From positions 564,734 through 628,733 of the forward strand of contig NZ_OMPU01000006.1 in NCBI RefSeq assembly GCF_900313065.1: DNA of 64,000 bases, read 5' to 3'. The stretch is from Kiloniella sp. EL199 (lineage in GTDB: Bacteria > Pseudomonadota > Alphaproteobacteria > Kiloniellales > Kiloniellaceae). Made by a program: the position numbers and the translations under genes. Positions 28,800 to 31,395 of this stretch are shown here, piece by piece. Positions within the stretch are counted from its first letter, which is position 1, and every line of letters starts with the position of its first letter. Under the pieces are notes generated by a model. The model worked only from the letters and a program-made list of their open reading frames with translations, ran no database searches and was not told the DNA's origin.

Positions 28800-28967
28800 T
28801 CAGACATTTTCAGCGGAACTGCATGAACAGCCACAGCCTTTTTGTCCCTGTTCCTTGGCAACTTCATCCGCTTTGCAACAGGCCGCGGTATTGTGTTCTG
28901 GTGATCCGCCGCAACATTGTTGACTGTGGGATGATGCTTTTTTCGATTTTCCTTTGTCTCGCTCCAT
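28800..28967 (-). CDS. Small cysteine-rich protein, possibly metal-binding
   Basis: A 55-residue open frame with a good ribosome site (CAGGAGA, 5-6 nt before the ATG). It is hydrophilic and has eight cysteines in clusters: QQCCGGSP, AACCKADE and GCGCSCSS. Paired cysteines in so short a chain suggest metal binding, as in metallothionein-like peptides. The gene is downstream of an ArsR-type regulator on the same strand with a 48-bp gap, so the two are probably co-transcribed and metal- or thiol-responsive. I do not recognise a named family. The frame is supported by the ribosome site, the cysteine pattern and the tight position. Confidence 0.65.
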   Translation of the reverse strand: MERDKGKSKKASSHSQQCCGGSPEHNTAACCKADEVAKEQGQKGCGCSCSSAENV

Positions 28968-29015: not shown

Positions 29016-29351
29016 TTAATTACACACAAACGAAGCATTGATTTCACAGCCATCACTATTTTGAGATGAGTCGACACAGCACTCGCAAACAAGATAATCG
29101 ACCAACTGCTGGACCGATGTGTAGTTGGCGCAACAAATCAGGGTCGTTGCCTGCCTTTCCTGAGTGATCAGGTCAGCGATCATGAGCGTTTTCAGATGGT
29201 GAGACAGGGTTGATCCCGGAATTCCCAATTTTTCCTGTAGTGCGCCTACGGACAGACCTTCTTTTCCGGCACGAATAAGGGCCCGATAAATATCCAGTCT
29301 TTTCGGTTTCCCCAAAGCTTCCATTTGTGACGCGGCAATTTCTACATTCAT
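29016..29351 (-). CDS. ArsR-family transcriptional regulator
   Basis: A 111-residue winged helix-turn-helix repressor. The DNA-binding part is clear: EALGKPKRLDIYRALIRAG, then the recognition segment LGIPGSTLSHHLKTL. The C-terminal third is rich in cysteine: Cys73-Cys74 after TTLI, Cys89, Cys91, Cys92 in LVCECC, Cys102 and Cys110, placing possible metal or metalloid ligands next to the dimer helix. There is no canonical ELCVCDL metal box in the recognition helix. It probably controls itself and the cysteine-rich peptide gene downstream; inducers may be arsenite, a thiophilic metal or oxidants. Confidence 0.88.
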   Translation of the reverse strand: MNVEIAASQMEALGKPKRLDIYRALIRAGKEGLSVGALQEKLGIPGSTLSHHLKTLMIADLITQERQATTLICCANYTSVQQLVDYLVCECCVDSSQNSDGCEINASFVCN

Positions 29352-29409
29352 CGTGTGACTCTTTTATAGTTGTTTAGCTTAATTCTTGCCTGTCGTTGTT
29401 TCATCGTTC

Positions 29410-29427
29410 GTGTAGGTCTATCTACAC
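29410..29427. promoter_or_regulatory. Candidate ArsR operator dyad
   Basis: GTGTAG (29410-29415) and CTACAC (29422-29427) form a perfect inverted repeat with a 6-bp centre, 59 bp upstream of the arsR-type start. Size and placement fit an ArsR-family operator; the pairing with this regulator is inference. Confidence 0.5.
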
Positions 29428-29612
29428 TTCTCTCTTCACGCCTAATGCAAAAATTAGCTAAATCACTGTAGATTAGGTTCTCAGTACATTAATCCATATT
29501 TCTGGAATTATAAAAATAAATATTTATATTCTATTTGTATGTCGGTGTTTAAAATCGATACAAAGGCGAGGCATTAAGGTGATCCAGAGATTTAAAATTG
29601 AAAGAGAATAGG

Positions 29613-29819
29613 ATGGAAGAGTTAGGTGAACGTATCAATGTTCTCGAAGGCTATATTGCAGAGCAGGATAAGACTATTCAGGACCTCAGCGATGTTTTGG
29701 CTGAGCAGTGGCAGGTCATCGAAAAACTTACCAAACGTCTCGAACGTTCAGAACGGATGGTTGAAGAAATTGTAAGTGGTCAGGATGACAGCGCGGGAAT
29801 AACTGTCTTCATGCCCTGA
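29613..29819 (+). CDS. slyX: SlyX-family protein
   Basis: A 68-residue coiled-coil protein: EELGERINVLEGYIAEQDKT, then IQDLSDVLAEQWQVIEKLTK, with heptad spacing of hydrophobic residues throughout. This matches the SlyX family in length, start (a coiled coil led by E-I-LE) and proline-ending tail. The function of SlyX is not established. The ATG at 29613 follows a purine-rich site; an in-frame TTG at 29598 is a less likely alternative. Confidence 0.78.
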   Translation: MEELGERINVLEGYIAEQDKTIQDLSDVLAEQWQVIEKLTKRLERSERMVEEIVSGQDDSAGITVFMP

Positions 29820-29855
29820 GGTTGATTATTTTCTGCGAAAAGACTTGGGTCTAAT

Positions 29856-30310
29856 CTACCTGGAAATGCTTTCGTCAAAATATGGACGTGTATAATAGTT
29901 ATCCCATTCTTCTGAATGAATATGTTGAAATCCGTGCTTTTTGTAAAAATTATTAGCTCTACTTTCTTTCAGGGCGCAAAGTTTTACAGGCAGTTTTTTT
30001 CGCAGGACATATCAATTATCTGTGTCATAACCGCAGAACCCACACCGTTGTTTTGTATGTCAGGATCTATATAGAGGTGATCAAGCCACAGATGATTATC
30101 TATGGCAAAAAGAACGTAAAAACCGATAACCTCATCATCTCTTAAAATAAGCGTTGTTTTTTCCGGTTTGAATCTACTGGTAAAGCGTTTTCGCGCGCGT
30201 TCGGAATCAAAGCGCCCAATATTTTCCAAGCTCTCCTTCATCGCAGCAATGCGAATTGAGATAAGTTTTTCCAAGTCTGATGCGACAGCTGTTCTGAAAG
30301 AGAGCGGCAT
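29856..30310 (-). pseudogene. GNAT acetyltransferase with a frameshift at an A7 tract
   Basis: The frame from ATG 30310 gives an N-terminal GNAT domain (FRTAVASDLEKLISIRIAAM, then DHLYIDPDIQNNGVGSAVM with the acetyl-CoA loop region) but stops at 29984 after 108 residues. The missing C-terminal part is present in the neighbouring frame down to a stop at 29856: KLPVKLCALKESRANNFYKK, then HGFQHIHSEEWDN, the usual end of a GNAT of about 150 residues. The two halves meet at a run of seven A (minus strand; 29994-30000). One extra A, or a -1 slip, restores a normal protein. It may be a sequencing error, a true mutation or recoding: the site reads A AAA AAC in the starting frame, a classic slippery heptamer. 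Confidence 0.8.
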
Positions 30311-30363
30311 AATGAGCTATATTTTTCATATAGTCTTTACGGAGAGAAAAGAAGGGATGAATT

Positions 30364-31395
30364 TTAAGATGTTTCCTGTATCACTCTATTACGGCCCTGG
30401 TCTTTTGCTCGATAGAGCGCTTCATCCGCACGCTGGATAAAACCTTCCAGCGCCTCGCCTTTAACATATTTTGAAACACCGATAGAGAGGGTGATCCGAC
30501 CAAACTCTTGTCCGGTCTTTTTATTACGAAGAACCTGTTTGGCGATTTTTTCTCTGATCTGATTGGCCAGGCTGGTTGCATCATGAAGGCTGGTGTTCGG
30601 CAGTATACAGGTGAATTCTTCACCGCCATAGCGTGCAGGCGTATCCTGTCCTTTGACGGCTCGTTTTAATTGCCCGGCAACAACCCTCAAAACTTCATCG
30701 CCAACCCTGTGGCCATAGGTGTCATTAAACTTTTTGAAATGATCAATATCCATAAGAAGAAGACAAAGTTCAGTTTTTTCTTCCTCGGATTTCCCTGCTT
30801 CTGCAATCAGGGTTGTATCAAATAATTTCCTGTTGCCGATTTGAGTAAGGGCATCGGTCAAAGATTCGGTTTTTACCTTCTCTAGGTTTGCCTGAAGGTT
30901 ATCAATCTCGCTGGATGATTTTTGGAGTTGGCTTTGTAAGGCTTTGTTTTTTTCCGTGATAGCAGCTGTTTCTCGGACAATTTCTTTTACAAAATGTTGA
31001 AGGGACGAAGAATTGTCTTCACTTGCCATATCGTCAGCAATACTTGTGATTTTTTCGCCATAATTCGCGTTATCGCTACCGGCCTCACTTATCTGTTGAA
31101 TGACTTGTTCCAAAGTTTTCTGAATCTTTGCACCAGCTTCTTGCAGATGATCGCCATGTGCCATGTCAGCTAAGTAAAATTTTTGATACAGCTCGTTACA
31201 GGTTTCTGTTGTGAAGGGCTTGTCGTCCTGAATAATTTTGTCAATGGCAATTTTAAGATCAGTATTTTTCCCACTAACATAGTCATACCAGATCGTGTAG
31301 TTAGGTGGTGTAGAAGGAATCCCTCTTTGATCCATGATAGTAATAGCTTGCTCTGCGTAGGTTTGAGCATGTGTGAAACTATCGGCAACCAACAT
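30364..31395 (-). CDS. Diguanylate cyclase (GGDEF domain)
   Basis: A 343-residue soluble protein. The N-terminal 175 residues are helical with a coiled coil (about residues 140-175, KNKALQSQLQKSSSEIDNLQ) and probably sense an unknown signal. The C-terminal GGDEF domain begins at about TDALTQIGNRKLFD and has the active-site loop ARYGGEEFTCIL, so c-di-GMP synthesis from GTP is expected. The usual inhibitory RxxD site before the loop reads KGQD, so product inhibition may be weak. No EAL domain or membrane segment is seen. Confidence 0.93.
   Translation of the reverse strand: MLVADSFTHAQTYAEQAITIMDQRGIPSTPPNYTIWYDYVSGKNTDLKIAIDKIIQDDKPFTTETCNELYQKFYLADMAHGDHLQEAGAKIQKTLEQVIQQISEAGSDNANYGEKITSIADDMASEDNSSSLQHFVKEIVRETAAITEKNKALQSQLQKSSSEIDNLQANLEKVKTESLTDALTQIGNRKLFDTTLIAEAGKSEEEKTELCLLLMDIDHFKKFNDTYGHRVGDEVLRVVAGQLKRAVKGQDTPARYGGEEFTCILPNTSLHDATSLANQIREKIAKQVLRNKKTGQEFGRITLSIGVSKYVKGEALEGFIQRADEALYRAKDQGRNRVIQETS

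What the first reader, a model, noticed from the sequence alone, without database searches (positions are those of the whole stretch)
29856..30310. GNAT gene broken exactly at an A_AAA_AAC slippery heptamer
Seen in the sequence: a GNAT acetyltransferase frame ends at 108 residues, and the rest of a normal GNAT lies in the -1 frame directly after seven A residues (29994-30000, minus strand). Read in the starting frame the site is A AAA AAC, a known -1 frameshifting heptamer, and a -1 slip there gives precisely the frame needed. A run of A can also cause polymerase slippage, phase variation or a sequencing error. The downstream frame has kept an unbroken coding pattern to a stop at the expected length, which suggests recent damage or continued use.
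Basis: partly seen in the sequence, partly recalled or inferred. Interest (0 to 1): 0.55.

Follow-up and report, generated by a model that had tools for sequence, protein, structure and literature searches.

The report
Acetyltransferase gene broken by recent indel
A small acetyltransferase gene in a marine bacterium is one base short in a run of A's, most likely a recent chance mutation (or a lone sequencing error) rather than a built-in frameshifting switch, so it is ordinary.

Summary
On the minus strand a GNAT frame opens at 30310 and stops at 29984 (108 aa). Seven A's lie at 30000-29994, read GAA AAA AAC in the starting frame, and the rest of the GNAT follows in the -1 frame to a stop at 29858-29856. 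The recoding interpretation is not supported. Five of the eight other genus genomes searched hold the gene, all in one open frame. None of 12 homologues examined has A_AAA_AAC in slip phase; two have the same letters as AAA AAA C, undisturbed. No downstream structure beyond chance, no Shine-Dalgarno-like stimulator. The heptamer sits in frame in 9 of 189 ORFs of 200 kb, this one included, and about half of long A-runs would give such a heptamer after losing one base. It is the only internal frame break among 175 orthologue pairs, so the assembly is not generally indel-ridden. Neither part shows decay, so the break is very recent. Verdict: fresh inactivation of a dispensable GNAT (two complete genus genomes lack it), or an isolated sequencing error; not programmed frameshifting.

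The parts
29984..30310 (-). GNAT acetyltransferase (E. coli YjaB-like), starting frame; residues 1-105 align with relatives, then N-C-L and TAA
   Evidence: ORF; Pfam PF00583, 38.9 bits, profile positions 24-92 of 116 only
29994..30000 (-). A7 tract; with 29993 it reads GA A_AAA_AAC in the starting frame; site of the frame change
29856..29993 (-). C-terminal 45 residues of the GNAT in the -1 frame, open to TAG; no ATG, GTG or TTG codon for independent initiation
30364..31395 (-). upstream neighbour: diguanylate cyclase-like (GGEEF motif seen; name recalled), intact; fixes synteny
29598..29819 (+). downstream neighbour: SlyX family, convergent

Best explanation
A single-base loss in an A-run coding for consecutive lysines broke this GNAT gene recently in this strain's lineage. 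The product is a 108-residue protein lacking the C-terminal third of the fold, most likely inactive. The slippery heptamer is a by-product: shortening a run of the type AAA AAA C by one base moves the C to codon position 3 and so writes A_AAA_AAC. Shown: the break, the intact single-frame orthologues, the lack of conservation and of stimulators. Inferred: that the loss is in the organism rather than in the reads, and that the truncated protein is inactive (the lost part holds the N-x-F-Y...G-F motif of GNATs, recalled as needed for acetyl-CoA binding and catalysis).
For: Five of five other genus genomes that hold the gene have it in one frame at the same place between the GGDEF gene and slyX; all 12 homologues read across the junction are uninterrupted. 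L013 and L015 carry AAAAAAC there in the phase AAA AAA C, which fits a run shortened by one in the window. 18 of 38 coding A-runs of 7 or more in 200 kb would yield an in-phase A_AAA_AAN heptamer if one base shorter, so the coincidence is weak. Downstream RNA folds no better than shuffles (z 0.55, -0.29, 1.06). The gene is dispensable: no match in two genomes rated complete, G001 and G002, whose syntenic region goes straight from the GGDEF gene to slyX. The assembly shows only this internal break among 175 orthologue pairs, which argues for a real mutation over a generally error-prone assembly.
Against: There is no sign of decay: window-unique changes are 3 synonymous and 5 nonsynonymous upstream, 0 and 1 downstream, no more nonsynonymous ones than in intact relatives, and dN/dS against G004 and G003 is low on both sides of the break. 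That fits a very recent event, but equally a sequencing error or rescue. No reads, second strain or proteome were available. PMC3711429 (passages) expects isolated frame breaks confirmed by BLASTp to be sequencing errors rather than genuine indels.
Confidence: 0.57

Rival explanations
1. Isolated sequencing or assembly error in the homopolymer; the gene is intact in the organism.
For: The -1 frame is undamaged to the expected stop and shows no relaxed selection; the site is a homopolymer; singletons of this kind are expected to be errors by PMC3711429 (passages).
Against: Only 1 of 175 orthologue pairs in 200 kb has an internal break, although the 189 ORFs hold 49 A or T runs of 7 or more; homopolymers seem otherwise read correctly.
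Confidence: 0.31
2. The break is rescued: ribosomes slip -1 at A_AAA_AAC, or RNA polymerase slips on the A-run, so that some full-length GNAT is made ('corrective' recoding in one strain).
For: The heptamer is in the right phase and a -1 shift gives exactly the frame needed; the downstream frame is preserved. A_AAA_AAC is very likely used by some bacterial IS elements (PMC4066793, passages).
Against: Not conserved in any of 12 homologues; no structure, no SD-like sequence in the 25 bases upstream; A_AAA_AAC is of low efficiency in E. coli (PMC4066793, passages); transcriptional realignment is described for A-runs longer than 7 (PMC3711429, passages).
Confidence: 0.1
3. Phase variation: the tract length switches the gene on and off.
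For: A homopolymer at the frame break.
Against: The tract is short; the five genus orthologues have A-runs of at most 6 at this place, and L014 none of 4 or more, so there is no conserved switch.
Confidence: 0.02

Closest known systems
Recent frameshift pseudogene / singleton fs-gene (GeneTack classification, PMC3711429, passages read)
   Same: One genome only, homologues intact, break at an A-run, no conserved frameshift site.
   Different: No further decay visible, so it cannot be told from a sequencing error without reads.
Programmed -1 ribosomal frameshifting of IS elements and dnaX (PMC4066793, passages read; dnaX recalled)
   Same: Carries an X_XXZ_ZZN heptamer in the correct phase.
   Different: No conservation, no stimulator, no mobile element seen at the site, heptamer of low efficiency in E. 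coli.
Corrective transcriptional slippage at poly(A) in insect endosymbionts (PMC5009743, passages read)
   Same: Frameshifted gene with a poly(A) run at the break.
   Different: Those have long poly(A) runs in reduced, AT-rich genomes; here A7 in a 4.18 Mb genome.
E. coli YjaB, GNAT (PDB 2kcw)
   Same: Closest solved sequence to the intact G004 orthologue, E 2.6e-06.
   Different: The window copy lacks the C-terminal third in frame.

Membership tests
programmed -1 ribosomal frameshifting | slippery heptamer in slip phase just before the zero-frame stop | tested here: met
   A_AAA_AAC, then two codons and the stop
programmed -1 ribosomal frameshifting | frameshift site conserved in orthologues | tested here: not met
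   0 of 12 homologues have it in slip phase; all are single-frame
programmed -1 ribosomal frameshifting | downstream structure or upstream SD stimulator | tested here: not met
   folds at shuffle level; no AGGAG-like stretch in CACAGATAATTGATATGTCCTGCGA
programmed -1 ribosomal frameshifting | frameshift product made in cells | not testable with these tools
   needs proteomics or a reporter
recent pseudogene by indel | intact orthologues in close relatives at the same place | tested here: met
   5 of 5 other genus genomes that hold the gene
recent pseudogene by indel | gene dispensable | tested here: met
   absent from G001 and G002 (rated 100% complete) at E <= 0.001, including the syntenic stretch
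recent pseudogene by indel | relaxed selection after the break | tested here: inconclusive
   few changes either way
recent pseudogene by indel | base loss confirmed in the organism's DNA | not testable with these tools
   no reads, no second strain
GNAT family (Pfam PF00583) | profile match above the curated cut-off | tested here: met
   38.9 bits against 20.7, but only positions 24-92 of 116 in the starting frame

The most novel reading that the evidence does not exclude
In this strain the broken GNAT is still expressed at a low level through -1 slippage at A_AAA_AAC or polymerase slippage on the A-run, so that a fresh indel has been turned into a weak expression control ('savior' indel) in a marine alphaproteobacterium.
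Probability: 0.08. Interest if true: 0.4.

Novelty: already known. Interest (0 to 1): 0.1.

Why it matters
It is a clean example of how a one-base loss in a lysine-coding A-run automatically writes a 'slippery heptamer' at the break, so such heptamers at single-genome frame breaks are weak evidence for recoding. About half of the long coding A-runs sampled would do the same (18 of 38).

Tried and rejected
Programmed frameshifting: rejected for lack of conservation and stimulators. Independent initiation of the downstream piece: rejected, its 45 codons hold no ATG, GTG or TTG (read). A structured RNA at the site: no Rfam family in 29400-30500 at the gathering score. A generally error-prone assembly: one internal break in 175 pairs. 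A second copy of the gene elsewhere in the genome: none. Kiloniella genome papers that might give the sequencing method: one search listed none that I opened; the window's species was not identified.

Weak points of my own tests. The first frame-break screen listed 8 candidates each way and missed the GNAT itself because BLAST segments overlapped; I replaced it by the screen. There, 12 of 187 G004 ORFs had no orthologue at 55% in the stretch and were not tested; breaks within about 20 residues of an end could be missed. Of the flagged pairs other than the GNAT (4 of 5 one way, 7 of 7 the other), all have their in-frame stops within the first 45 residues, which I take for over-long start choices, not individually proven. 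Codon counts for G006 and several downstream pairs are saturated. The first alignment had five loci in the wrong orientation and was replaced.

Full report
OBSERVATION. On the minus strand an ATG at 30310 opens a frame of 108 codons that ends at TAA 29986-29984. At 30000-29994 lie seven A's between G and C, read GAA AAA AAC, so the slip-phase heptamer A_AAA_AAC is there as stated. From 29993 the -1 frame reads LPVKLCALKESRANNFYKKHGF... for 45 codons to TAG 29858-29856. This piece is the C-terminal part of the same GNAT. The starting frame matches Pfam PF00583 only over positions 24-92 of 116, while the intact G004 orthologue reaches 116. The closest solved sequence to that orthologue is E. coli YjaB.

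RELATIVES. The window's genome G000 (4,177,471 bases, 19 contigs) belongs to the genus of Kiloniella majae: G004 contig C11 and NZ_MTSZ01000002.1 have the same length, and both gave a 72% match. Of 9 genomes of the genus searched, own included, 6 hold the gene. The five other copies are single open frames of 143-151 residues, in the same place between the GGDEF gene and slyX (G004 by coordinates). Three genomes have no match: G005 is 77% complete; G001 and G002 are rated 100% complete, and in both the GGDEF gene is followed directly by slyX. Twelve homologues from this genus, the family and other bacteria (L010-L018, L029-L031) all read through the junction without a break. None has the heptamer in slip phase; L013 and L015 have the letters AAAAAAC as AAA AAA C. 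Weaker matches of the family search (L019-L027, 25-32% identity) were not examined at the junction.

IS IT A SIGNAL? RNA folded from 60-87 bases at and after the site is no more stable than shuffles (z 0.55, -0.29, 1.06). The 25 bases upstream hold no Shine-Dalgarno-like stretch. In 200 kb of this genome 9 of 189 ORFs hold A_AAA_AAC in slip phase, this one included. Of 38 coding A-runs of 7 or more, 18 would give an in-phase A_AAA_AAN if one base shorter, so finding such a heptamer at a break in an A-run is close to an even chance. In E. coli A_AAA_AAC is of low efficiency, though some IS elements very likely use it (PMC4066793, passages read). Poly(A) transcriptional realignment is described for runs longer than 7 (PMC3711429, passages).

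REAL BREAK OR ERROR? I compared 200 kb of G000 with 200 kb of G004. Of 187 G004 ORFs, 175 had an orthologue at 55% or more, and only the GNAT had an internal frame change. The 189 G000 ORFs hold 49 runs of 7 or more A or T, so the assembly seems to cope with homopolymers in general. A single error cannot be excluded.

AGE. Downstream of the break the window differs from G004 by 12 synonymous and 4 nonsynonymous changes over 36 codons; upstream dN/dS against G004 is 0.25. Changes unique to the window are 3 synonymous and 5 nonsynonymous upstream, 0 and 1 downstream; the four intact relatives compared have as many or more nonsynonymous ones. The gene was thus under purifying selection until very recently, or still is.

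MECHANISM AND VERDICT. The economical account is a one-base loss in an A-run of a dispensable GNAT, giving a truncated, probably inactive protein; the heptamer follows from the loss. A lone sequencing error is the main rival; rescue by slippage is possible but has no positive evidence beyond the heptamer, its phase and the preserved downstream frame.

Noticed in passing
window 28800-28967 (-), next to the ArsR-type regulator 29016-29351 (-): A 55-residue stand-alone ORF with seven cysteines (CCGG, ACC, GCGC.C) and a good ribosome-binding site, conserved beside the regulator in six genus genomes (G000, G003, G004, G006, G007, G008). In G001 and G002 the same segment is the C-terminal tail of a roughly 480-residue flavin monooxygenase (weak ArsO match) followed by an ArsK-like transporter below that family's cut-off, and in six other alphaproteobacteria among 289 genomes searched it lies in open frames of 464-604 residues, one of these with a stop inside. 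The tail seems to have outlived its enzyme as a free, possibly arsenic- or metal-binding peptide; no Pfam or NCBIfam match.
   Followed up: partly
L064 5963-7668 and L065 5925-7632 (between the arsenic-type genes and guaA): G001 and G002 carry a short-chain dehydrogenase and a LysR-type regulator (names recalled from sequence) in a stretch that is much shorter in the window: a variable spot between arsR and guaA.
   Followed up: no
L010 (G003), GNAT residue 127: The otherwise conserved glycine of the KHGF motif is arginine in G003 (KHRF), perhaps a sign that this GNAT is loosely constrained there too.
   Followed up: no
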